DNA of 64,000 bases from an uncultured Prevotellaceae bacterium (lineage in GTDB: Bacteria; Bacteroidota; Bacteroidia; Bacteroidales; Bacteroidaceae), in the NCBI GenBank assembly GCA_949299545.1, contig CASGAM010000025.1, positions 1-64,000 on the forward strand, given 5' to 3'. A program made the position numbers and the translations under genes. This document shows, one piece after another, positions 34,245 to 45,202 of this stretch; the stretch's first letter is position 1; each line of letters begins with the position of its first letter. A model generated the notes under the pieces. The model ran no database searches. It saw nothing but the letters and a program-made list of their open reading frames with translations, and had not been told where the DNA came from.

Positions 34245-37200
34245 TTATTTGATGAAAATTTTTTCGTTTGAGACTTCTCCGTTTTCAAAGACCGTCATTT
34301 TGATGTTGAGTCCTTTGTGAGGAGTATCCGACGGGATGCCATCAGGTGAATAGTAGGTAGTACTGATTACTTTCCGCATGTGTGAGTCTTTGATAAGTTC
34401 CGTTCCGGTGTCGTCACCGACAGGTATAATATCAAATAGGTAGTCAACAGGCACAAAACTGATAACTGTCCGGATGTTACCGGCTGCATCCATGTCCCAA
34501 TAAGCATTGCCGCCTGTACCTGCCCAGAATATGCTTGAGAGGTCATAACCTTTTGCGTCGGCTATCTGGAATACTTTTGATTCCTTATTGGAATATTCTA
34601 CGCTAGAGTTTATATACATGCTGTCTGCCAACGACATGAAAGAATGGAAAGACGTGAACGTGTTTACTTTCCATTGTTGGGCTTTTGGATTCAATTCATC
34701 TTTTGGCTTGAAAACAGGCGCAATGCCGTTACCGTCGTTAGTCATGTAGGTGTTACTCGGCCGGTGGACGATATAGTAGTTTCCTTTGGGCAGGACTTTT
34801 TTTGTTTCATCCATGACATATATGCGATAGTTGAATTGCAGGGCGTTTCCGTCTTTTTCGTATTCAAGACTGTATGTTGCGGATGTCTGCATGTCTTTCA
34901 ATATGAGTTTTTCATCGGTCGAACCGTCGCTCCACTTATACGAACCGCCAATCATACTGCCTGTTGGCGTGATGGAAAGCGTCACGCTGTCTCCTTCGTT
35001 GACTGTAACCATGGCCGTGTCGGTGTAGCATCCGTTGTTTACGGTGATGTCTTGGCGTACGCTTTGTACGTTGATATAGAATGTTGCCTTTTGTTTGCGG
35101 CCGCCTTGTCCGGTGAATATATTGGAAATTTCGCGACTGGTGGTTACGTTTGGAATGGTCAATATGTTTCCGGTTGCTCCGTTTTCCCAGACTTGTTCTC
35201 CCCATCCTGTCTTGAAGTTGGCTTCCAATATGACTTCGGTTCCGTAGAGTACGCTGATGGTGTTGGTTGCTTGACGTTTCCCGTTTACGGTGATATAAGT
35301 TTCCATGGCACTTCCTTCGCAGTCACCTTGTACAGCGATGGTGAAAACCTGTTCGCTTTTCACGCCGTTCTCATTGGTATAAGTGGCACGCCATACGCCG
35401 CTCTTGTCTGCAACGACCGTTATGTCTTTGGTCGTTTCCCCGGTATTCCATTCCCAAAGTCCTGTGTCAGTAACCCCGTCGGGGAGTTGTGGCTTGAGTG
35501 TGACAATGGTGCCGGCCGGTAATCCGGTATTGGTATTGACCTGGAATGTATTGGTCAGGCCGCCGAGTTCGTTGTGTTCTACACTGACACCGTTATATTC
35601 CATGATAGGGGTGAGAAGCGTCGGGACATTTTCGGGGGAAACCTTTTCCCGTGTGTGCATTAAAACTGAATAGCCGAGATGGTCATAACCACCACTGGTG
35701 GCTCCGGCTCCGCCGCCGTCGATACCCATTTTTTCATAAGCAGTCTTTGAGAATGGCATTTCCACACCTTTGATACCTTCGTAGTGGCCGATGACGGTAC
35801 CCCAGTACGGGCGGATTTGTTCACCCAATGCCGGGCCGGTTTGTAGCCAGGCTCTGTAGTCGGACCAATGATAACCACTTGAACCATAATGATAGTCTGT
35901 CCATGGCAGTCCTTGTATGCTTTGCATCTGTGCGGCAACATATTCTATGCCGGCAGCCAAACGGTTGTCCATATAAGAGAACAGGTCGTCTCCCTGGTTC
36001 CATGCCATCTGGGCGACATCGATAGCTAATCCTGCAGCCATGGAGGCATGTCCGATATCACGCCCGCTTTCCTGCATCTGTCCTAATTTACCGTAAGCAC
36101 CGGTCTCTAAATCTGATTCTTGTGTGGTGACAACAAGATTGCCGATGAATTCCGTCAGTCCGTCGTTTTTTATCGGAGTTTCGGTACGTGGGTCTGTAAA
36201 GGTGCCCACCTGGTCATATTTGAAGTATGACAACCCTTGATTATAGATAAATACATCGTCGCAGAGAATACCGATACTCATGACGGCCAATACATTGCAG
36301 AGTCCCCAGTTAGACCAGTAATGACCCGGGCATTGCCACCATTTACCGACATTCTCCCACGTTCCGTTACGTCCACGCAGGAAGCCTATGCAAGACGGAT
36401 ACCAAACATTTATCATCCATTGCTTGAAATAGGCAAAATCTTCCGGTGACCAGCCTTCGTAATCTCTTACCAATTCTGCCGCCTGGGCAAACTGATAACC
36501 GTATAATCCGGCCGCCAAAGCATAATTACTGTCGCCGCCGATACCTGTGGTTGTGCGTGCCCACTGCATAAGTACGTCCACGGCATGGGCGGCATGAGCC
36601 TTTGAACCGTCGATTTGCCATCTCAGGGCATTTTGATAGGCAATGGTGGCACCCCGAGCGGCGTTAATATAGTTTTGGCCGCTCGAGCCGCCGCGTATGA
36701 TCGTCTCAACAGGATAAGTCGCGCAGGTGGATTGTGAATATTCGGCATTTATGAGTGTGTTATAGGCCGAAACAACCTTGCTGTTGTTATCTTTAATCTG
36801 CTGGCGTATTCGTTCAAAGTCTTCTTGTGTGTGTAGACCGCCTGGATGACGGAATCCTCTGTCAGTGTCATAGCCTTCCGTAATATCGTCATCTCCGAAT
36901 ATGAAACCGGCGGTGGCTTCCAATGCAGCGCGCGCGTTGTCCAGTATGCTCTTTTGTTCGTCGATGATGGATTGGTTGACCATTCCTTCGTTAATCAGGT
37001 CTTGCGCAATGTTTATTTCGTCGATATATAAGTCCACGGCAGCTGTCGGGTAAGATGATGCGTTGTCTGCAATGAACGATTTTGCCTCGTTGACAGCTGT
37101 TTGCAAAGCTGTGAAATCTCCAGTACTTCCGTAGCGGTACTCATAATCCAGATCTTCAGTAAGTGCCGAGAGGGATTTTATTTCGTCTGTGTTGAGAACC

Positions 37201-37904
37201 CTGTTATATAATCTGATGTCATAGACTAATGTGTTTCTTAAATAATTGTCTGCTGAGAACGGAGCGCGGCCTATCCATACATAAGGAATGGAGGAAGTGA
37301 AATTACTGCTGTTGACGGGCATGGCGCTGCTGGAACCCTTTTTGACACCGTTAAGGTAAAGAGCCCCATTGGCATTGTCTTGTGTGTAAAGGACATGAAT
37401 CCATTTGCCTTTTTCCGATTCACCGCCTATTTCTATACCGGTTTCATTGGCATATCCTCCGGTTGAGTTGGCAAAACGTTGCGCATTCAGGCGGTAAGCC
37501 GAATATTTTCCTTCATTGCTTGTACAGGCCGTTGAAGTTGAAAAAGACCATAAAAAGAAACCGGCACCAGTAAGTGATGCCTTTTCATCCACTCTGTAAT
37601 ACATGGAAAGCGTATACGAGTCGTTTTGTCTGAAAATATCACCGGCCTCTTCCGTGAGGTCAAGGTAGCCGGAGCCATTCCCAAGATTTAAGACGTGGTA
37701 TTTCCCCATTTCGTCTATTCGGGCATCATTCATTAAAGTCGCCGTAAGGGCTGTATTTACGACGTCTGAAACGCTGTTGCCGTTAGTATCCTCAAAATCA
37801 AACTTCATGCACAATCCGTCTTCTTGTGCGAAAGCGGTAAGATTTGTTACTAAAAACATGCAGAACACAGCGGTGGTTCTGATTTTTCTTATAAGGCTTT
37901 TCAT
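34245..37904 (-). CDS. Secreted multidomain protein: LamG plus alginate-lyase-like domain
   Basis: A 1219-residue exported protein. A signal peptide (1-27) leads to a LamG/concanavalin-like domain (about 30-235, with YVWIGRAPFSADNYLRNTLVYDIRLYNR). A helical linker (about 255-335) follows, then an alpha/alpha-toroid alginate-lyase-superfamily domain (about 345-740, opening RGFRHPGGLHTQEDFERIR, with GHYWSNWGLCN and QESGRDIGHA as probable active-site regions). Ig-like beta domains (about 770-1040) and a ricin-like module (about 1050-1215, NYYIVHRPSNTYMTNDGNG) complete it. It probably binds and cleaves a polysaccharide outside the cell or on its surface; the substrate is unknown. There is no SusCD pair or regulator beside it, and it is flanked by dispersed-repeat sites on both sides. 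Confidence 0.82.
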   Translation of the reverse strand: MKSLIRKIRTTAVFCMFLVTNLTAFAQEDGLCMKFDFEDTNGNSVSDVVNTALTATLMNDARIDEMGKYHVLNLGNGSGYLDLTEEAGDIFRQNDSYTLSMYYRVDEKASLTGAGFFLWSFSTSTACTSNEGKYSAYRLNAQRFANSTGGYANETGIEIGGESEKGKWIHVLYTQDNANGALYLNGVKKGSSSAMPVNSSNFTSSIPYVWIGRAPFSADNYLRNTLVYDIRLYNRVLNTDEIKSLSALTEDLDYEYRYGSTGDFTALQTAVNEAKSFIADNASSYPTAAVDLYIDEINIAQDLINEGMVNQSIIDEQKSILDNARAALEATAGFIFGDDDITEGYDTDRGFRHPGGLHTQEDFERIRQQIKDNNSKVVSAYNTLINAEYSQSTCATYPVETIIRGGSSGQNYINAARGATIAYQNALRWQIDGSKAHAAHAVDVLMQWARTTTGIGGDSNYALAAGLYGYQFAQAAELVRDYEGWSPEDFAYFKQWMINVWYPSCIGFLRGRNGTWENVGKWWQCPGHYWSNWGLCNVLAVMSIGILCDDVFIYNQGLSYFKYDQVGTFTDPRTETPIKNDGLTEFIGNLVVTTQESDLETGAYGKLGQMQESGRDIGHASMAAGLAIDVAQMAWNQGDDLFSYMDNRLAAGIEYVAAQMQSIQGLPWTDYHYGSSGYHWSDYRAWLQTGPALGEQIRPYWGTVIGHYEGIKGVEMPFSKTAYEKMGIDGGGAGATSGGYDHLGYSVLMHTREKVSPENVPTLLTPIMEYNGVSVEHNELGGLTNTFQVNTNTGLPAGTIVTLKPQLPDGVTDTGLWEWNTGETTKDITVVADKSGVWRATYTNENGVKSEQVFTIAVQGDCEGSAMETYITVNGKRQATNTISVLYGTEVILEANFKTGWGEQVWENGATGNILTIPNVTTSREISNIFTGQGGRKQKATFYINVQSVRQDITVNNGCYTDTAMVTVNEGDSVTLSITPTGSMIGGSYKWSDGSTDEKLILKDMQTSATYSLEYEKDGNALQFNYRIYVMDETKKVLPKGNYYIVHRPSNTYMTNDGNGIAPVFKPKDELNPKAQQWKVNTFTSFHSFMSLADSMYINSSVEYSNKESKVFQIADAKGYDLSSIFWAGTGGNAYWDMDAAGNIRTVISFVPVDYLFDIIPVGDDTGTELIKDSHMRKVISTTYYSPDGIPSDTPHKGLNIKMTVFENGEVSNEKIFIK

Positions 37905-38423
37905 AATATAAATAATGTTGGTTGTTTATAAAGATAAGTTCTGTATTTACGAATTTAAGTCAGATTGATTCTTATGAATTGGGTTACGTCTTTTGATCAA
38001 AAATACCGGATTTATTCTGAAATAGCCCTGATAAATAAATCCAAATGTTATGCCATTTTGAAACATGGGTAAAAAGGACGTTATTACATCTGTTATCCGG
38101 CTGCTGGAACAAACTCTTTCACATTCCGTCCTGCGATGGCGGCTGTTTTTCTCCTGTTCCGCAAATGTCTGACTGCCTGTTCCGGCACCTGCGATGACGT
38201 CTCAAAATGCAAGCGGTCGCAGCATTTGCTGCGTGCGGTCGCCTTGTAGCAGCGACAGGTAGAAAATTTTGTTGCGACCGCTCGCAATTTTGTGTAAAAA
38301 GTCGAGATTATAATTTGCTGATAGTGTTCGGTTTATATTTTAAGAACATTCTCGTGTCGTTTTATGCTTCTTGATTATTTTCATATTTACATATACATTG
38401 GTGGAACTCATTACCTGCTTCCT
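37905..38423. other. Intergenic region with repeat site 4
   Basis: This 519-bp region upstream of the lyase-like gene holds the fourth dispersed-repeat site. A TATCTTTA close to the -7 consensus on the reverse strand (about 37940) may serve the lyase-like gene. No gene is supported. Confidence 0.55.
38208..38292. repeat. Dispersed intergenic repeat, site 4
   Basis: Modules are TGCAAGCGGTCGC (38208-38220), GCGGTCGCC (38235-38243), GCGACAGGT (38252-38260) and GCGACCGCTCGCAATTTTG (38274-38292). The spacing is 17-27 bp. An AAAATTTTGTT tail precedes the last copy. It is more decayed than sites 3 and 5. Confidence 0.82.
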
Positions 38424-39779
38424 TTATTTTACATGAATCCACATGTCTTCAAAATTAAATATAATGGTATCATATTCTTTAAATATGAAATTACCTATCA
38501 TTCCATCGTATTTAAATACATTATCTGGTAAAATCCATGTTAGGTTGCATGGTAAATTCCTGTTTCCTTCCCCAATTTTGACATTGGCTCTTGTAGGGAT
38601 TTTAACAGGTATATTTCTGTCTAATGATGTAAATCCCATTGTAGTGACAATGGAATCTTTGGCTATGGGAATTTCTTTCTGATTTACTTTATAGAATTTC
38701 TCATTTATTCTAATTCCCCCTTCCATACCAGTGTCTAAATGTCCGGTAAAAGGTATGTCGTTCAGTGTAATCCTTGCGTAAAGTGTATTGTCAATGAGGG
38801 CAATGGGCGACTTTGAAATAGGGTCAGATGTTATGGAAGGCATAGAAATAACATGTTTTTGGGTGTCAAAACATATTTCTTTCATATATCTCAGGCAGGG
38901 CATTCCCCAAATTAGATCCGGAGATTCTAATAGCTGTATCCCTTTGTTGATACGTTTTTCCAAGGTATCGCCCATGCTTTCTAATAGTGTTTCCCTTTTA
39001 ATGTCTGGTAAAACGGCTACTTGTAAGTTGTAAAAGATATAGTTTCCTATTTGCAAAGAGTCTATTATGGCACGTTGTGAAATCGTATTTCCATTTACAT
39101 AAGTGGTGTCATTGGCTATATATTTTACATTCAGTTGGTCGGCTTTCTTTTTATACATGACGGGCATACCTGCTCCTGTATCCATAAGAGATGTTATTTT
39201 TTCCTTGTTGCATAGGACATCACAAAAAGTTAAATGTGTGCCTGTAGGGTTTGAATAATGCAGGATAGTGTCCTGAGGTAATCGTTTTACTTTCAATGGT
39301 GGACATTGACTTAACCTTTCATAAAAAGGCTTTAGGGTAATTTGTTCTTTTTGTTTGTTAATAACAAATGAGTCTTCAGATTGGATGCTCAGTATGTCTT
39401 TACAGATTTTAAGTGAGTTACTAAAATCTTGTAAGTAGTCGCAATGATTTTGCAGTAGCATGAGCCAGCTGATTTTGTCTCCATCAGCATCATTTTTTTC
39501 GTTTTTGTATATGTCTATAATCTTGTAAGTCTTCTCTGAAAGATTATCCAAGCTATTGAAATGATAGTCGTTTAATAAATCTGCTATTTGCCATAATGTA
39601 GGATTGGTAGTGTTTTCCCTATTTTGTGACTGCATAAAACTTCTCATTTCAATCCACCTTTCAGCATTGAGGAAAGAAACTAATTGTTTGTCACTTTCTG
39701 CATTCTGGGCAAAAATATGAATATGCAGCCCGATAAAAAAATAAAAAGTATTCCTTTTTTCATATGATAGTATGTGCAT
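38424..39779 (-). CDS. Exported retropepsin-like aspartyl protease
   Basis: A 451-residue protein with two aspartyl-protease half-domains. The first has SLMDTGAGM (Asp200), the second GHLDTGMEGG (Asp349), each followed by hydrophobic-hydrophobic-Gly patterns (IWGM, MIGNFIF). An N-terminal tetratricopeptide-like helical region covers about 30-160. The leader HILSYEKRNTFYFFIGLHIHIFAQ is hydrophobic, but an overlapping frame starting at ATG 39763 reads MKKGILFIF and would enter the same protein if a run of seven Ts had eight. The gene is clearly AT-richer than its neighbours. The substrate is unknown; it probably acts in the periplasm or on the surface. Confidence 0.8.
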   Translation of the reverse strand: MHILSYEKRNTFYFFIGLHIHIFAQNAESDKQLVSFLNAERWIEMRSFMQSQNRENTTNPTLWQIADLLNDYHFNSLDNLSEKTYKIIDIYKNEKNDADGDKISWLMLLQNHCDYLQDFSNSLKICKDILSIQSEDSFVINKQKEQITLKPFYERLSQCPPLKVKRLPQDTILHYSNPTGTHLTFCDVLCNKEKITSLMDTGAGMPVMYKKKADQLNVKYIANDTTYVNGNTISQRAIIDSLQIGNYIFYNLQVAVLPDIKRETLLESMGDTLEKRINKGIQLLESPDLIWGMPCLRYMKEICFDTQKHVISMPSITSDPISKSPIALIDNTLYARITLNDIPFTGHLDTGMEGGIRINEKFYKVNQKEIPIAKDSIVTTMGFTSLDRNIPVKIPTRANVKIGEGNRNLPCNLTWILPDNVFKYDGMIGNFIFKEYDTIIFNFEDMWIHVK

Positions 39780-39821
39780 GTATGATTGAGATGATTTCTG
39801 AATACTTTTAAAAAGCCCGGC

Positions 39822-40682
39822 TTAATCATTTAGCCAAGGTTTGATTGTTTTTTCTGTCAGTTCCCATAATTCATTTTGCTGCGCATGCGGAGTGAATTTG
39901 GCGGATAGTGTTTTGGGGCGTCCGCTGGCGAACAAGCGGCCTGAGGTCTGTTCCCATTCCTTGTCCAGTAAAAGTCTGATGGCGGTGTCCGCGCCTTGGC
40001 GAGGTGTTCTGATGAACGGCCTGAAGAAGAGGTCTGTCAGTGGATCAAACCACATTTGCATCGTTATGATGTCTGTAGAGACAATGCCCGGATCTGCCGC
40101 ATTCACGGTGATGCCGCGTTCACGTAACTGTTCCGCCAGTTTTAAGGTAAATAATGTCAGGGCCAGTTTGGTGTTACTATAAACAGGAATGCGCCAAAAA
40201 GAACCTTTCCGGCCTTTTGTAAAAAAGTCGGGAAAATCAAGCCGGCCGATAGCGTACGTGCAAGACACCATGTTAACGATGCGGCTTCCCTTGTCCATGA
40301 GAGGCAACAGCTTGCGAGTGAGAAGATAAGGGCCTACATAATTGACGCTGACTGTTCTTTCCAAACCATCTGCAGTCGTTCTCCTTGCAGTTTCCATTGT
40401 TCCGGCATTGTTCATTAACAGGCTTATCTTCTCCTTGCGTTGCAACAGGTGGTCTGCAAAGGCCGCTACAGTTGCTAATGAAGCAAGGTCCAGATGCTTG
40501 CATTCTATTTGTGTATTGCCGGTTTCCGTTATCAGTTGTTGTCTGCGCAGCTGGGCTCTCTCCATATTACAACAAGCCATCACTACACGGTATCCGGCCA
40601 TTGCTACAGCACGGGTTATTTCGGTTCCCATACCACCGTCTGCACCTGTAATGACAGCTATTTTCATTTCTGTTTCAGCCAT
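39822..40682 (-). CDS. Short-chain dehydrogenase/reductase, possible hydroxysteroid dehydrogenase
   Basis: A 286-residue NAD(P)-dependent oxidoreductase with the classical SDR layout: cofactor motif TGADGGMG at about 13-20, LMNNAG, the catalytic Ser in NMVSCT, and the YxxxK pair in YSNTK. Its long loop after the Ser (FPDFFTKGRKGSFW) is reminiscent of retinol-dehydrogenase-like SDRs. It follows an Old-Yellow-Enzyme gene by 13 bp and a steroid 5-alpha-reductase gene before that, so a 3-hydroxysteroid dehydrogenase role is a reasonable guess from context but is not shown by sequence. The internal ATG at 40667 (MKIAVITG) is an alternative start. Confidence 0.85.
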   Translation of the reverse strand: MAETEMKIAVITGADGGMGTEITRAVAMAGYRVVMACCNMERAQLRRQQLITETGNTQIECKHLDLASLATVAAFADHLLQRKEKISLLMNNAGTMETARRTTADGLERTVSVNYVGPYLLTRKLLPLMDKGSRIVNMVSCTYAIGRLDFPDFFTKGRKGSFWRIPVYSNTKLALTLFTLKLAEQLRERGITVNAADPGIVSTDIITMQMWFDPLTDLFFRPFIRTPRQGADTAIRLLLDKEWEQTSGRLFASGRPKTLSAKFTPHAQQNELWELTEKTIKPWLND

Positions 40683-40695
40683 GTCGTTGTTGTTT

Positions 40696-41919
40696 TTATC
40701 CCCGCTCTTCTATTCTGGCAATCTCTTTCCGGATAGCTTTTGGTAAGGTTTCATCAAGTTGGCAATGGCAGACCATGTCCAAAGAGTACATACGGGCTAT
40801 ACAATAGTTGCTGTGTCGGCAGTTGCAACGGGCCTGTTCTTCGTTTAACATGCGGTTTACAAAGTCTGGTTCATGAATCAGGGCACGTCCCATTTGTACC
40901 GCTTCAAAGCCATGGCTTAGCACTTCATCGATTATACTCCTTGAGACTAAGCCACCGACGTAGACCAACGGTATCTTGATGCGTTGCCTGAACTTCAGGG
41001 CGTCCTCCAGGAAATAGGCTTCTTTAAAGGGTACGGATGGTACCATATAACGTCCTGCAAGCCTTACACCGTATTTCAGCCACCAGCAATCCATATAATG
41101 GGTCATCGTCCGGATCGGCATCTCGCCACGCATGACATACATGGGCGCCTTGCTGACGAATCCTCCGCTCAATACCAAGGCATGTACGCCGCTTTTTGAC
41201 AACCGTTCGGCTACCTGGAGACTTTCGTCTATTTCCATTCCCCCCTTGAAACCGTCGCGCATGTTCATCTTTACAAAAACGGCCATGTCCTGACCTGCGG
41301 CAGTCATAACTTCCTCCATCACCATATCCATAAAACGCATTCTGTTGGATAGGGAACCGCCGTACTCATCTTTCCGATGGTTTGTATACGGAGAAAGAAA
41401 CTGACTGACAAGATAGCCATGTCCGGCATGAATCTCAACGGCATCGAATCCGGCTTCACGCGCCAAACGGACGGCATCGCCATAAGCACGTGCTATAGTT
41501 GGCAATTCATCGGCATGCAGTCCCCTGACAAAAGTAGGCGAATATAAGTTGAAACCCGTACTGGCTCCGACAGGTGTACAGCCGCAAATACGTTTGTGCG
41601 ACATGTTGCCGCAATGTCCCAACTGTATGCTCGCGGCTGCTCCTTCAGCGTGGACGGCATCGGTCAGTTCTCGCAAACCGGGGATTATTTCCGGGCGCAT
41701 CCAGAGTTGTCTTTCAAATGACAGACCACTTCTGCATACCGCTGCATAGGCCACCGTAGTCATGCCGATGCCTCCGGCCGCCACCGAGCGGTGATAATCG
41801 AGCAACTGTTGTGAGGGCGCATTGCCCGGACACATGCTTTCAAATGCGGCCGACCGTATCGTCCTGTTCCGTAAGGTGAGGGGACCGAAAGTGACGGGTG
41901 TGAACAAATTGGATTTCAT
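40696..41919 (-). CDS. Old Yellow Enzyme-family NADH:flavin oxidoreductase
   Basis: A 407-residue FMN-dependent TIM-barrel ene-reductase. The family motifs RNRTIRSAAFE, AAASIQLGHCG, GFDAVEIHAGHGYLVSQFLSP followed by NHRKDEYGGS, and VYVGGLVS near the FMN phosphate are present. A Cys-rich C-terminal segment (CNCRHSNYC) recalls the iron-sulfur site of the larger BaiCD/2,4-dienoyl-CoA reductase type, but the second flavin domain of that type is absent. OYE relatives reduce alpha,beta-unsaturated ketones. In bile-acid-converting Bacteroidetes a related protein acts as a delta-4-3-oxo-steroid 5-beta-reductase. Its tight spacing to the 5-alpha-reductase (20 bp) and SDR (13 bp) genes supports a steroid role. 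Confidence 0.85.
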   Translation of the reverse strand: MKSNLFTPVTFGPLTLRNRTIRSAAFESMCPGNAPSQQLLDYHRSVAAGGIGMTTVAYAAVCRSGLSFERQLWMRPEIIPGLRELTDAVHAEGAAASIQLGHCGNMSHKRICGCTPVGASTGFNLYSPTFVRGLHADELPTIARAYGDAVRLAREAGFDAVEIHAGHGYLVSQFLSPYTNHRKDEYGGSLSNRMRFMDMVMEEVMTAAGQDMAVFVKMNMRDGFKGGMEIDESLQVAERLSKSGVHALVLSGGFVSKAPMYVMRGEMPIRTMTHYMDCWWLKYGVRLAGRYMVPSVPFKEAYFLEDALKFRQRIKIPLVYVGGLVSRSIIDEVLSHGFEAVQMGRALIHEPDFVNRMLNEEQARCNCRHSNYCIARMYSLDMVCHCQLDETLPKAIRKEIARIEERG

Positions 41920-41939
41920 GATATTGTTTTGAAGGGCAG

Positions 41940-42707
41940 TTAATAAATAAACGGAATGATACGTTTCCTTTGGCCAACCTTTTCACCAAACTCTTGCCGG
42001 TAGCGCCGGTGGATGGCATTTGCTCTCGGCACGAGGTTGGCGAATGTCCACCACACAAACACCCAAGCGGCAGGCGAGGCTGTCAATAGCGCAAAGCCTG
42101 TCCACTCTACCAATTCTCCGAAATAGTTGGCAGAGGTGACATAACGGTAGAACCCTTTCTCGGGCAGATAATGTGCCGTGTCGCCCGGTTTCCTCAGATG
42201 ACGGATGACGTGGTCTGAATGCCAGTTTATGGCCAAGCCTGCAAAAAACACTATCAGTCCGGTCATTGCTTGCGGACGCAAAAGATACTTCCAGCCCTCG
42301 GCTGCATAATCCGTTTCCGGAAAATAAAACAACCCACCGGCCTGCATCACGCCGTTCAACACATTGAATACAACGCCCATAAACATGATTGCCAGCGGCA
42401 TTTTGCTTTTGCCCGTAATCATGAATGGAAAGATAAAAGAACGTTGGAAATAATGTAATTCAAACAAAAGGAGAAACAAAAAGGTCGGCCATGTCAGCCC
42501 GACACCGCTCTGCCACCATAATACCAGCATGACCACAAATACCGGCATTTCCATCCACATCCATGCCCAGCGGTTGTCGATGGCTCGTCCCCAGGACGAT
42601 GTCCGGAACATGCCATAGCCCGCCTTGACAAAGTAAAGCGCGATGAAAACGAAAAGTGCGCATGCACTCATAATCCATAATAACAGGTGAAAGGAATGTG
42701 CTGTCAT
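41940..42707 (-). CDS. 3-oxo-5-alpha-steroid 4-dehydrogenase (steroid 5-alpha-reductase) family
   Basis: A 255-residue integral membrane reductase with six or seven helices. The match to eukaryotic SRD5A enzymes is direct in several blocks: SWGRAIDNRWAWMWMEMPVF, LHYFQRSFIFPF, and the C-terminal NADPH-binding region with NWHSDHVIRHLRKPGD, YVTSANYFGELVEW and the terminal IPFIY. These enzymes saturate the C4-C5 double bond of 3-oxo-delta-4 steroids with NADPH. In gut Bacteroidetes the equivalent enzyme acts on 3-oxo-delta-4 bile acids to give allo (5-alpha) forms. It is the first of three tightly packed redox genes (5AR, OYE, SDR). The acyl-CoA ligase gene lies 86 bp upstream. Confidence 0.9.
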   Translation of the reverse strand: MTAHSFHLLLWIMSACALFVFIALYFVKAGYGMFRTSSWGRAIDNRWAWMWMEMPVFVVMLVLWWQSGVGLTWPTFLFLLLFELHYFQRSFIFPFMITGKSKMPLAIMFMGVVFNVLNGVMQAGGLFYFPETDYAAEGWKYLLRPQAMTGLIVFFAGLAINWHSDHVIRHLRKPGDTAHYLPEKGFYRYVTSANYFGELVEWTGFALLTASPAAWVFVWWTFANLVPRANAIHRRYRQEFGEKVGQRKRIIPFIY

Positions 42708-42793
42708 AAGTTTGGGCGTTTATGAGCGATTAAGGTAGAACTTTTGTGATGCTTGGCGTGCCGCATTCTGCACCGGAGGCATCTTTTTCAGGG

Positions 42794-44464
42794 TCAGATT
42801 TCAACGTCAGCGTATAGGAAACGCTTGATACTGCGTTTGGGAGTCTTTTCAAATTCTTCTTTGAAGAGTTTGATGCCGGAAACCTTGGCGTATGAGGGGA
42901 GCGCGGCATTGAGTTCAACGCGGTTTTCCTCCATTACCCGCTCTATGTCGATTTCCTGTAAGCCCAGTGCTTGTGCCTCTTCATAATCGGGATGCACTAA
43001 ACCGTACAATTTTTCTCCTTTTTGGATGACAATGCTTTCGTTGACCAGTGTCATGTTGTTGAGCAGGTCTTCTATTTCTTCCGGGTAGATGTTCTGTCCG
43101 TTGGCTCCTAAAAGCATGTTTTTGCTTCGGCCTTTGATGAATAAATTGCCTTCTTCGTCGATGATGCCCAAATCGCCCGTGTGATACCAGCCGTCTATCA
43201 ATGTTTCTTTGGTAGCTTCTTCGTTCTTGTAATAGCCCAGCATCACGTTGGTGCCACGTGCTAATATTTCGCCTACTTCGTTGTGAGGGTCGCTGCTGTT
43301 AATCTTGATTTCCATACGCGGTGCAGCCTTTCCGCACGAGCCTAACTTGAAATCTTTCCAGTCTTCGTAAGTGATGATGGGGGCACATTCCGTGGCGCCA
43401 TATCCTACGGTATAATTGAAGCCGATGTCGTGCAGAAGTGCTTCTATTTCGCGGTTGAAAGCAGCGCCGCCGACAATGACTTCGTAGAAATTTCCACCGA
43501 AAGCGGCTTTTATCTGCTCGCATATCTTGTCTTTTATTTTCTGTCGTACAACCGGGATCTTGAGCAACATCTTGACGGTCGTCCCCTGAATTTTGGGGAG
43601 GACTGCCTTGCGGATGATTTTTTCAATGACCAGCGGTACGGCAATGATGATGACGGGCTTGATTTCAGAGAATGCCGTGAAAAGTATCTGCGGTGAGGGG
43701 ACTCTTGTGAGGAAATACACCTTGCACCCAGCGCAGAACTCGTAAATGAATTCAAAGGACATACCGTACATGTGTGCCATCGGTAACATGGAGACAACAG
43801 GGTCGCCGGGTTTGACATGTGGCCCCAATACGGTTCTGGCGAACTCTAAGTTAGACCAGAGGGCGCGGTAGGGAATCATCACACCTTTTGAGCGGCTTGT
43901 TGTGCCTGAGGTATAGTTGATGACTGCCAGTTCGTCGTCACTGCCTTTATAGTATGAGATGTGGTGCTTGCGGAAGTTCTTCGGATAACGTTCTCCGAAC
44001 AGTTGGTTCAGATGTTCGCGGGCATAAATGACTTTCTGCGTGCGGCCGACCAGAAGTGAATAGTCGGTTATGCAGATGATGCCTTCCAACCCCGGCATTT
44101 CATTGGCGTCCAGTTCGTTCCATACGACATCGCCTACAAATAGCAACTTCGCTTCGCTGTGGTTTACTATGTTGTGTACCTGTTCGGCCTTGAATTCATG
44201 CAGTATGGGAACGGCCACTGCACCGTAAGTCAGTGTTGCAAAGAAAACGGCGCCCCAGTGCGCGCAGTTACGTCCGCAAATGGCTATTTTGTCTCCGCGT
44301 TGTACGTTGCTGTATTCAAAAATGATATGAAGTTTTTCGATGATGCGGGCAATGTCCTTGTATTGGAAAGTTTCGCCCTTGTAGTCGGCCAGTGCGTCAA
44401 GGTCCCAATACTCCTTGATGCTTTGCTCTATTTGTTCATTGAAGTTTTGGTGTGTTTCTTCCAT
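42794..44464 (-). CDS. AMP-forming long-chain acyl-CoA synthetase
   Basis: A 556-residue adenylate-forming enzyme that activates a carboxylic acid with ATP and CoA. The AMP-binding signature YTSGTTSRSKGVMI, then GYGATECAPI, and the hinge region GWYHTGDLGIIDEEGNLFIKGR are intact, with a C-terminal lysine region (KTPKRSIKRFLY). It resembles the FadD15-like synthetases conserved in Bacteroidetes, for which fatty acids are the expected substrate. Because the steroid-reductase trio lies directly downstream, activation of a bile-acid side chain is a possibility worth naming, but nothing in the sequence requires it. It follows yggS by 66 bp. Confidence 0.92.
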   Translation of the reverse strand: MEETHQNFNEQIEQSIKEYWDLDALADYKGETFQYKDIARIIEKLHIIFEYSNVQRGDKIAICGRNCAHWGAVFFATLTYGAVAVPILHEFKAEQVHNIVNHSEAKLLFVGDVVWNELDANEMPGLEGIICITDYSLLVGRTQKVIYAREHLNQLFGERYPKNFRKHHISYYKGSDDELAVINYTSGTTSRSKGVMIPYRALWSNLEFARTVLGPHVKPGDPVVSMLPMAHMYGMSFEFIYEFCAGCKVYFLTRVPSPQILFTAFSEIKPVIIIAVPLVIEKIIRKAVLPKIQGTTVKMLLKIPVVRQKIKDKICEQIKAAFGGNFYEVIVGGAAFNREIEALLHDIGFNYTVGYGATECAPIITYEDWKDFKLGSCGKAAPRMEIKINSSDPHNEVGEILARGTNVMLGYYKNEEATKETLIDGWYHTGDLGIIDEEGNLFIKGRSKNMLLGANGQNIYPEEIEDLLNNMTLVNESIVIQKGEKLYGLVHPDYEEAQALGLQEIDIERVMEENRVELNAALPSYAKVSGIKLFKEEFEKTPKRSIKRFLYADVEI

Positions 44465-44530
44465 TGCACATTTTGTTTTGTTGTGTGCAAAACTAACTGA
44501 AAAAAATCATATAAACAAGTCGCAGACTGA

Positions 44531-45202
44531 TTAATAATGCCTTTCTCCGAAAATTTTACTACCGACGCGTATCAAGGTGCTGCCTTCTTCAAGAGCGATG
44601 GGGTAGTCGTGGCTCATTCCCCATGAACATTCTTTAAAAGAAGGGCTGTCCGGAAAGTATGTGGATTTGGCTTTAGTAAAGAATGCGTGCGCGCGACGGA
44701 ACTCGGCGCGGACTTGCCCGGCGTCATCGGTATTGGAAGCCATGCACATGATGCCGCAGATGGTTACGTGTTGCAGGCTGCGCCATTCGCCATTTTCAAG
44801 GAAAATTTCACACTCTTCAGGCGTGAAGCCGTATTTGGTTTCTTCACATGCTACGCGCAGTTCCAGAAGGCAGTCAATGGTGCGACCGACTTTTGCAGCC
44901 TGCTTGTCGATTTCTTTCAGAAGTCTGGCGGAGTCTACGGCATGGATGAGGCTGACATAAGGGACGATGAATTTGACTTTGTTGGTTTGCAGGTGTCCGA
45001 TGAAGTGCCATTCTATGTCTTTGGGCAGACATTCATGTTTCGCTTGCAGCTCCTGAACATGGCTTTCGCCGAAAATGCGTTGTCCGGCGGCGTAGGCTTC
45101 TTCAATGCAACTCGCCGGATGAAATTTTGAGACGGCCACCAGACGTGTGCCTTCAGGCAACATGCGATTGATGGCATTTATTTCTTCCTTGATGTTTGGC
45201 AT
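44531..45202 (-). CDS. YggS-family pyridoxal-phosphate homeostasis protein
   Basis: A 223-residue TIM-barrel protein (PLPBP/YggS, alanine-racemase N-terminal fold) that binds pyridoxal phosphate and buffers its cellular level. LVAVSKFHPASCIEEAY contains the PLP-binding lysine. GESHVQEL, EWHFIGHLQTNK and the phosphate-binding MSHDYPIALEEGSTLIRVGSKIFG block are diagnostic. The family has no established catalytic reaction. It lies 18 bp downstream of the DUF4494 gene, an arrangement common in Bacteroidetes. Confidence 0.95.
   Translation of the reverse strand: MPNIKEEINAINRMLPEGTRLVAVSKFHPASCIEEAYAAGQRIFGESHVQELQAKHECLPKDIEWHFIGHLQTNKVKFIVPYVSLIHAVDSARLLKEIDKQAAKVGRTIDCLLELRVACEETKYGFTPEECEIFLENGEWRSLQHVTICGIMCMASNTDDAGQVRAEFRRAHAFFTKAKSTYFPDSPSFKECSWGMSHDYPIALEEGSTLIRVGSKIFGERHY

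What the first reader, a model, noticed from the sequence alone, without database searches (positions are those of the whole stretch)
39822..42707. Candidate steroid/bile-acid reduction module: 5-alpha-reductase, OYE and SDR
Three leftward genes spaced 20 and 13 bp apart encode a membrane steroid 5-alpha-reductase with SRD5A-like C terminus, an OYE-type ene-reductase and an SDR. Clusters described in gut Bacteroidetes that make isoallolithocholate combine a 5-alpha-reductase, an OYE-like 5-beta-reductase and a 3-beta-hydroxysteroid dehydrogenase, which is the same set of enzyme classes. This organism may therefore remodel 3-oxo-delta-4 bile acids or steroid hormones.
Basis: partly seen in the sequence, partly recalled or inferred. 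Interest (0 to 1): 0.75.

Follow-up and report, generated by a model that had tools for sequence, protein, structure and literature searches.

The report
Gut bacterial bile-acid ring-flipping gene trio
Three adjacent genes in a gut Bacteroidales genome match, gene for gene, a cluster found in gut bacteria that are reported to reshape bile acids; it is a new member of a known kind, with one unusual cysteine motif in its flavin enzyme.

Summary
In detail: three intact leftward genes, 20 and 13 bp apart, encode an SRD5A-type 5-alpha-reductase (5AR), a 407-aa OYE and an SDR. The trio is an ordered cassette found in many gut Bacteroidales. The same order and SDR family occur in Phocaeicola massiliensis, in two Phocaeicola-group genomes whose contig lengths fit P. 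vulgatus and P. dorei, and in 17 of 19 examined 5AR-positive Parabacteroides-group genomes. Reviews place the isoallolithocholate 5AR/5BR/3-beta-HSDH cluster in these lineages.

Details added: two different SDR families (SDR1, SDR2) share the third slot, and the window has only SDR2. Seven of seven Parabacteroides genomes with OYE-SDR1 have no 5AR match. The OYE is not built like BaiCD: it lacks the FAD/NAD domain, and its Fe-S-type motif keeps three invariant cysteines while the second is replaced. The cassette is accessory in its genus (3 of 18 genomes). Verdict: new member of a known kind, modest interest.

The parts
41940..42707 (-). 5AR: membrane steroid 5-alpha-reductase (SRD5A family), 255 aa
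   Evidence: PF02544 129 bits; 7c83 and 7bw1; E53, Y86, R89, D165, E198, Y236 invariant in 84 of 84 relatives, N161 83 and N194 82 of 84
40696..41919 (-). OYE: short single-domain FMN oxidoreductase, candidate 5-beta-steroid dehydrogenase/reductase (5BR), 407 aa
   Evidence: PF00724 183.7 bits; H164, H167, Y169 invariant in 100 of 100 rows; model pLDDT 86, best Foldseek matches are single-domain OYEs of the Thermus/Geobacillus kind
40762..40827 (-). codons 365-386 of the OYE: variant Fe-S-type motif C365-x-C367-x-H369-x3-C373-x10-C384
   Evidence: C367, C373, C384 100/100; H369 98/100; C365 82/100; compared with four-Cys motifs of relatives. Metal binding is inferred
39822..40682 (-). SDR2: short-chain dehydrogenase/reductase, 286 aa, third slot of the cassette
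   Evidence: PF00106 113.6 bits; S140, Y168, K172 invariant in 58 of 58 relatives (rows pre-selected at 40% identity or more)
42794..44464 (-). AMP-binding acyl-CoA ligase: conserved flank, probably not part of the module
   Evidence: PF00501; DUF4494-YggS-ligase present, without cassette genes found in the fetched stretch, in 14 of 14 congener regions

Best explanation
The trio is a self-contained A-ring remodelling cassette for 3-oxo steroids, most likely 3-oxo bile acids. (1) The OYE takes hydride from a 3-oxo-5-beta (bent) substrate onto FMN and makes the 3-oxo-delta-4 compound (inferred; the reverse, reduction, is possible). (2) The membrane 5AR reduces the delta-4 bond with NADPH from the alpha face and gives the flat 5-alpha (allo) 3-oxo product (inferred from family and residues). 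(3) SDR2 reduces the 3-oxo group to an alcohol; by analogy with the reported cluster 3-beta, giving iso-allo acids (weakest step). The OYE lacks the FAD/NAD(P) domain of BaiCD-type enzymes, so its electrons pass directly between NAD(P)H and FMN, or through the C-terminal cysteine site to a separate protein or carrier. Shown here: genes, order, orthology, residue conservation. Not shown: any activity.
For: Ordered 5AR>OYE>SDR cassettes in many Bacteroidales. The same three families in the Parabacteroides and Phocaeicola groups, for which reviews report 3-oxo-LCA or 3-oxo-delta-4-LCA going to isoalloLCA through 5BR, 5AR and 3-beta-HSDH (P. merdae, B. dorei: PMC12916643 and PMC10382948, passages), with loss of allo products when P. 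merdae 5AR is disrupted (PMC10382948 passage). Catalytic residues of 5AR, OYE and SDR2 intact. The OYE-family enzymes BaiCD, BaiH, CasH and 5-beta-delta-4-KSTD1 are shown 5-beta-delta-4-dehydrogenases (PMC8044976, abstract and passages). In Sphingobium plasmids, distant short OYEs lie beside a gene annotated 3-beta hydroxysteroid dehydrogenase or a gene that scores 128 bits with my SDR2 profile.
Against: No activity data for this organism. The OYE is far below the BaiCD model cut-off (191 of 825 bits) and differs in build from the four enzymes named in PMC8044976. B. theta and A. onderdonkii are listed with 5AR but not with 3-beta-HSDH activity (PMC12692668 Table 1), so an SDR in such lineages need not give isoallo products. 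The parts are separable: one Parabacteroides-group locus has 5AR alone, seven Parabacteroides genomes have OYE-SDR1 and no 5AR match, and one more (L129/G328) has a broken OYE with SDR2 and no 5AR match.
Confidence: 0.68

Rival explanations
1. The module is reductive and branching: the OYE is a true 5-beta-reductase, so OYE and 5AR compete for 3-oxo-delta-4 substrates (hormones, or bile-acid intermediates made by Clostridia), with no 5-beta to 5-alpha flip inside one cell.
For: A gut Clostridium 5-beta-reductase was found in the OYE family (PMC12238238, passages); BaiCD is reported to work in both directions (PMC8044976).
Against: A review passage says several Bacteroidota strains turn 5-beta 3-oxoLCA or isoLCA into isoalloLCA (PMC10382948), which needs oxidation at C4-C5. 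Parabacteroides OYE-SDR1 genomes without 5AR neither favour nor exclude this.
Confidence: 0.25
2. SDR2 is not a 3-beta-HSDH: it makes a 3-alpha alcohol or acts at another position, and SDR1 is the 3-beta-HSDH of Odoribacteraceae and P. distasonis; the window organism would stop at 3-oxoallo or allo products. (Not exclusive with the other readings.)
For: SDR1 and SDR2 are different families; P. distasonis has OYE-SDR1 and is listed as 3-beta-HSDH positive, while B. theta and A. onderdonkii are listed only for 3-oxoalloLCA (PMC12692668 Table 1).
Against: B. dorei and P. merdae are reported isoalloLCA producers. The Phocaeicola-group and Parabacteroides-group cassettes with 5AR that I examined carry SDR2 and not SDR1. 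G396, G486 and G504, which by handle numbering belong to the 298 genomes, are not among its 11 SDR1 matches. That any of these is B. dorei or P. merdae rests on contig length and recall.
Confidence: 0.3
3. The natural substrates are not host steroids but other cyclic enones (plant or dietary terpenoids, sterols, drugs).
For: OYE, SDR and 5AR families are broad; 16 of the 40 5AR loci fetched have no OYE next to the 5AR; short-form OYE relatives on plasmids of Burkholderia, Nocardia and Tsukamurella have no steroid gene that I could recognise, but most of those records carry no annotation here.
Against: The counterparts of SRD5A2 E57 and Y91 are intact; named carriers are gut genera reported for allo-bile-acid formation; one Sphingobium relative lies beside a gene annotated 3-beta hydroxysteroid dehydrogenase.
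Confidence: 0.12

Closest known systems
Bacteroidota isoallolithocholate cluster (5AR, 5BR, 3-beta-HSDH) reported for P. merdae and B. dorei
   Same: Same three families; same order and same SDR2 family as the Parabacteroides-group and Phocaeicola-group cassettes examined
   Different: Different host (Paraprevotella-like MAG, 79% complete), different chromosomal site, 57-81% protein identity to those copies; activity untested
Odoribacter/Sanguibacteroides/Barnesiella cassette 5AR-OYE-SDR1-SDR2
   Same: 5AR, OYE and SDR2 shared in order
   Different: Has an additional SDR1 between OYE and SDR2; SDR1 not found in the window genome at E <= 1e-25
BaiCD / BaiH, CasH, 5-beta-delta-4-KSTD1 (OYE-family 5-beta enzymes)
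   Same: OYE family, catalytic Tyr position, proposed C4-C5 chemistry
   Different: KSTD1 is about 75 kDa with two flavins and a predicted four-Cys [4Fe-4S] site, BaiCD and BaiH share size and cofactors, CasH a similar domain structure (PMC8044976); the window OYE is 407 aa, without FAD/NAD domain and with a three-Cys variant motif
Fe-S flavoenzymes whose FAD/NAD(P) domain is a separate protein (rare cases, BilR context)
   Same: A review says the two domains are rarely encoded as two proteins (PMC11574389 passage), a precedent for an OYE without its own FAD domain
   Different: No FAD/NAD(P) protein lies beside the window OYE; the bilirubin-reductase models score the window OYE far below cut-off (138.6 of 425 and 122.7 of 750 bits)
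Bacterial and human SRD5A (7c83, 7bw1)
   Same: Near-full-length match and intact catalytic residues
   Different: Sequence divergence only
BaiP/BaiJ, the Firmicutes bile-acid 5-alpha-reductases
   Same: Same outcome, allo bile acids (PMC9645264, abstract passage)
   Different: Reported there to differ from the membrane 5AR of Bacteroidetes

Membership tests
Bacteroidota 5AR-5BR-3-beta-HSDH (isoalloLCA) cluster | SRD5A-type 5AR, OYE and SDR genes adjacent on one strand | tested here: met
Bacteroidota 5AR-5BR-3-beta-HSDH (isoalloLCA) cluster | Orthology of each gene, in order, with cassettes of Parabacteroides and Phocaeicola | tested here: met
Bacteroidota 5AR-5BR-3-beta-HSDH (isoalloLCA) cluster | Identity with the characterised proteins by accession | not tested
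   primary papers not held
Bacteroidota 5AR-5BR-3-beta-HSDH (isoalloLCA) cluster | SDR has 3-beta-HSDH activity | not testable with these tools
   SDR1 and SDR2 alternate in the slot; needs an assay
Bacteroidota 5AR-5BR-3-beta-HSDH (isoalloLCA) cluster | Conversion of 3-oxoLCA or 3-oxo-delta-4-LCA to allo or isoallo products | not testable with these tools
   no culture data
Steroid 5-alpha-reductase (SRD5A) | PF02544 domain with the Glu and Tyr that polarise the C3 carbonyl | tested here: met
   role of E57 and Y91 from PMC7591894 passages
BaiCD equivalog (NF041087) | Score above cut-off 825 bits over 642 positions | tested here: not met
   191 bits, best stretch on profile positions 3-261
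Fe-S/FAD long-form OYE (BaiCD, KSTD1 type) | Four-Cys [4Fe-4S] motif and C-terminal FAD/NAD(P) domain | tested here: not met
   three invariant Cys, second Cys replaced, protein ends at 407 aa
Old yellow enzyme superfamily | PF00724 with the H-x2-H-x-Y active site | tested here: met
   the motif as active site is recalled
Classical SDR | TGxxxGxG, NNAG and S-Y-x3-K (motifs recalled) | tested here: met

The most novel reading that the evidence does not exclude
The gut Bacteroidales 5BR is a new build of OYE: a single-domain flavoenzyme in which a reshaped Fe-S site (three invariant Cys, a His at +2, second Cys lost) stands where BaiCD-type enzymes go on into their FAD/NAD domain. It would link steroid C4-C5 oxidation to a separate carrier such as ferredoxin, flavodoxin, ETF or menaquinone, so that bile-acid ring flipping serves as an electron outlet or inlet, and the SDR slot would be an exchangeable module that sets the C3 outcome (SDR1, SDR2 or both).
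Probability: 0.22. Interest if true: 0.6.

Novelty: new member of a known kind. Interest (0 to 1): 0.36.

Why it matters
IsoalloLCA is reported to promote Treg cells and to inhibit Gram-positive pathogens (PMC12916643 and PMC10382948, passages). The finding adds a Paraprevotella-like lineage to likely makers of flat bile acids and shows that the trait is accessory there, so genus-level profiles will not predict it. It gives a usable genotype rule: 5AR+OYE+SDR2, 5AR+OYE+SDR1+SDR2, or OYE+SDR1 without 5AR. It also points to a build of the 5BR that differs from the characterised enzymes and can be tested on one protein.

Tried and rejected
Rejected: (a) that the acyl-CoA ligase upstream belongs to the module: it stays with YggS and DUF4494 in 14 of 14 congener regions (14 fetched of 16 congeners with a strong ligase hit), with no cassette gene in the 3.7-10.4 kb fetched behind it. 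(b) That the cassette is foreign by composition: GC 0.495 against 0.488 in the 10 kb upstream and 0.429 downstream. (c) Phage carriage: in the IMG/VR scan 23 stretches matched a pattern and none encoded the OYE; no tRNA in the window; in 37800-44600 only imperfect short repeats. (d) My own earlier idea that SDR1 is the published 3-beta-HSDH and that the window had lost it: 5AR-positive Parabacteroides-group cassettes carry SDR2, not SDR1.

Led nowhere: the AlphaFold model is least certain near the cysteine motif (block 371-380 mean pLDDT 52), so it says nothing on cluster geometry. In one search my script picked wrong reading frames for L225-L227; these were not counted. The careful OYE tree did not finish (the quick tree was used) and the 5AR tree failed.
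Full report
Observation. Pfam gives Steroid_dh, Oxidored_FMN and adh_short well above cut-off. The 5AR matches the solved bacterial and human enzymes along nearly its whole length; its E53 and Y86 correspond to human E57 and Y91 (PMC7591894, abstract and passages) and are invariant in 84 of 84 relatives. The OYE has H164, H167 and Y169 invariant in 100 of 100 rows. SDR2 has S140, Y168 and K172 invariant in 58 of 58. These row sets were pre-selected by likeness to the window or to the profile, so they speak for this cassette family only.

Host. The window lies in a 2.3-Mb, 79% complete genome. A same-genus genome, G009, has a contig of 29,112 bases, equal to that of CALULT010000040.1, 'uncultured Paraprevotella', so the host is probably Paraprevotella-like. 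In the genus, 3 of 18 genomes have the 5AR. In 14 of 14 congener regions fetched, DUF4494-YggS-ligase is present without the cassette behind it, including the two congeners, G003 and G009, that carry the cassette elsewhere. The cassette is therefore accessory and sits at different sites. The quick OYE tree joins the window to G003 (SH-aLRT 97) inside a clade made mostly of Bacteroidaceae; G009 falls elsewhere in that clade with weak support.

Cassette. Of 295 Bacteroidales genomes searched, 82 have a 5AR match at E <= 0.001, some of them weak. Of the 40 loci that I chose to fetch from these and, 24 have the OYE next to the 5AR and 16 do not; the latter are mostly the more distant 5ARs. Among 104 loci with a strong OYE, the 90 with enough flank divide into 49 with 5AR+SDR2, 19 with 5AR+SDR1+SDR2, 7 with 5AR+SDR1, 7 with SDR1 only, 4 with 5AR only and 4 with SDR2 only; the other 14 are cut by contig ends. 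My distance filter misfiled some of the last four: L095 and L121 do have a complete 5AR upstream, L151 has a 5AR fragment 6.5 kb away, and L129 has none. Some records are present twice (for example L038/L082, L039/L108, L049/L140), so these are counts of loci, not of species.

Two SDRs. SDR1 (about 266 aa) and SDR2 (about 283 aa, the window's) belong to distinct SDR families. The seven Parabacteroides loci with OYE-SDR1 lie in genomes with no 5AR match at E <= 0.001 (7 of 7; completeness not told). A named Parabacteroides distasonis record shows OYE-SDR1 without 5AR beside it, between an RND efflux operon and L25/Pth genes. In the genus of G121, which includes Parabacteroides sp. An277 (G638, equal contig length), 20 of 38 genomes have 5AR. 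I examined 19 of these 20 loci (17, plus L048 and L126; G648 was left out): 17 have 5AR-OYE-SDR2, one has 5AR alone, one is cut by the contig end, and none shows SDR1. In the window's family, SDR2 occurs in 93 of 298 genomes at E <= 1e-60, and SDR1-like genes (36-48% identity) in 11 of 298 at E <= 1e-40. SDR1 was not found in the window genome at E <= 1e-25; among the 12 SDR2-type genomes of that call one, P. barnesiae, had a 37% match.

Link to the known system. The primary papers are not held. Reviews, read as passages, state that P. merdae, O. laneus and B. dorei make isoalloLCA, that disruption of 5AR in P. merdae stops allo products, and that 5AR is clustered with a predicted 3-beta-HSDH and an NADH:flavin oxidoreductase thought to be the 5BR (PMC10382948; PMC12916643). 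P. massiliensis, named, has 5AR-OYE-SDR2. So do G504, with a contig of 5,163,189 bases that I recall as the P. vulgatus ATCC 8482 chromosome, G486 (5.63 Mb, P. dorei-sized) and G637 (4.38 Mb, P. merdae-sized). These three species names are inferences from recall. A review table lists 3-beta-HSDH for O. laneus, Odoribacteraceae, P. distasonis and P. merdae, and 5AR for P. goldsteinii, B. theta and A. onderdonkii (PMC12692668, passage with Table 1). This does not sort cleanly by SDR1 or SDR2, so the C3 outcome stays open. A 2018 chicken-caecum study found the 5AR gene in all its Bacteroidetes isolates except two Odoribacter isolates and P. distasonis (PMC6069880, passage): this agrees with the P. 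distasonis locus here, while the Odoribacter locus that I read (L049/L140) does have 5AR.

OYE build. The protein scores 191 bits against the BaiCD model (cut-off 825). Characterised OYE-family 5-beta-delta-4-dehydrogenases are large: KSTD1 is about 75 kDa with two flavins and a predicted four-Cys [4Fe-4S] site, it did not use NAD+ and quinones are suspected acceptors (PMC8044976, abstract and passages). Of 12 BaiCD-model hits fetched from Bacteroidales, the eight long forms all have CxxCx3Cx11C; one (L228) is a short OYE without the motif, and three were misread by my script. Six of seven short-form relatives outside the Bacteroidales (37-44% identity) have CxxCxxCx9-11C; the seventh, Rhodococcus, reads differently at its end. 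In the Bacteroidales rows C367, C373 and C384 are invariant (100 of 100); position 370, which aligns with the second Cys, is Ser 78, Val 13, Thr 5, Lys 2, Ala 1, Gly 1; H369 is 98 of 100 and C365 82 of 100. I infer a reshaped Fe-S site, perhaps with His or C365 as a fourth ligand, and no built-in NAD(P)H domain. A review notes that the two domains of Fe-S flavoenzymes are rarely encoded as separate proteins, and that a [4Fe-4S] cluster held by three Cys can be catalytic in another enzyme family (PMC11574389, passages); so neither feature is without precedent in kind. That the site is dead is possible, but three invariant Cys argue against it. I do not claim that the motif is unpublished: searches were broad searches, seen as listings apart from the passages of PMC11574389 and PMC12238238.

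Judgement. What is new is detail: another host lineage, a modular SDR slot and an unusual 5BR motif. Substrate, direction and stereochemistry need assays.

Noticed in passing
window 38424-39779: Retropepsin-like aspartyl protease gene (PF13975/PF13650) of GC 0.34 directly behind the cassette, far below the window's 0.459.
   Followed up: no
L229 1-8006; L130 5941-6965; L048 6599-10882: In Parabacteroides the OYE cassette lies between an RND efflux operon (with a PG0541-family gene and, by eye, a response-regulator-like gene in L130 and L048) and L25/Pth; the same site seems to hold OYE-SDR1 in some species and 5AR-OYE-SDR2 in another.
   Followed up: partly
L261 (G631): A 6.8-Mb Parabacteroides-group genome has 5AR without OYE or SDR in the 13 kb fetched around it, which would suit a strain that stops at 3-oxoallo products.
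   Followed up: no
L129 4136-6396 (G328): Parabacteroides sp. with the OYE in two pieces, SDR2 intact beside it and no 5AR match in the genome: a decaying cassette or an assembly error.
   Followed up: no
L101 1352-11912: In Bacteroides oleiciplenus the cassette sits between genes that look by eye like a citrate-cycle operon and pfkA/ispH/cmk; ORF sizes suggest the same site in several other Bacteroides.
   Followed up: no
L231-L237: Short-form OYE relatives, six of seven with a four-Cys motif, on plasmids of Sphingobium, Novosphingobium, Nocardia, Tsukamurella, Rhodococcus and Burkholderia; in Sphingobium beside a gene annotated 3-beta hydroxysteroid dehydrogenase or an SDR2-like gene.
   Followed up: partly
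window 34245-37904: 1219-aa secreted-looking protein with LamG and alginate-lyase-like domains next to the cassette region.
   Followed up: no
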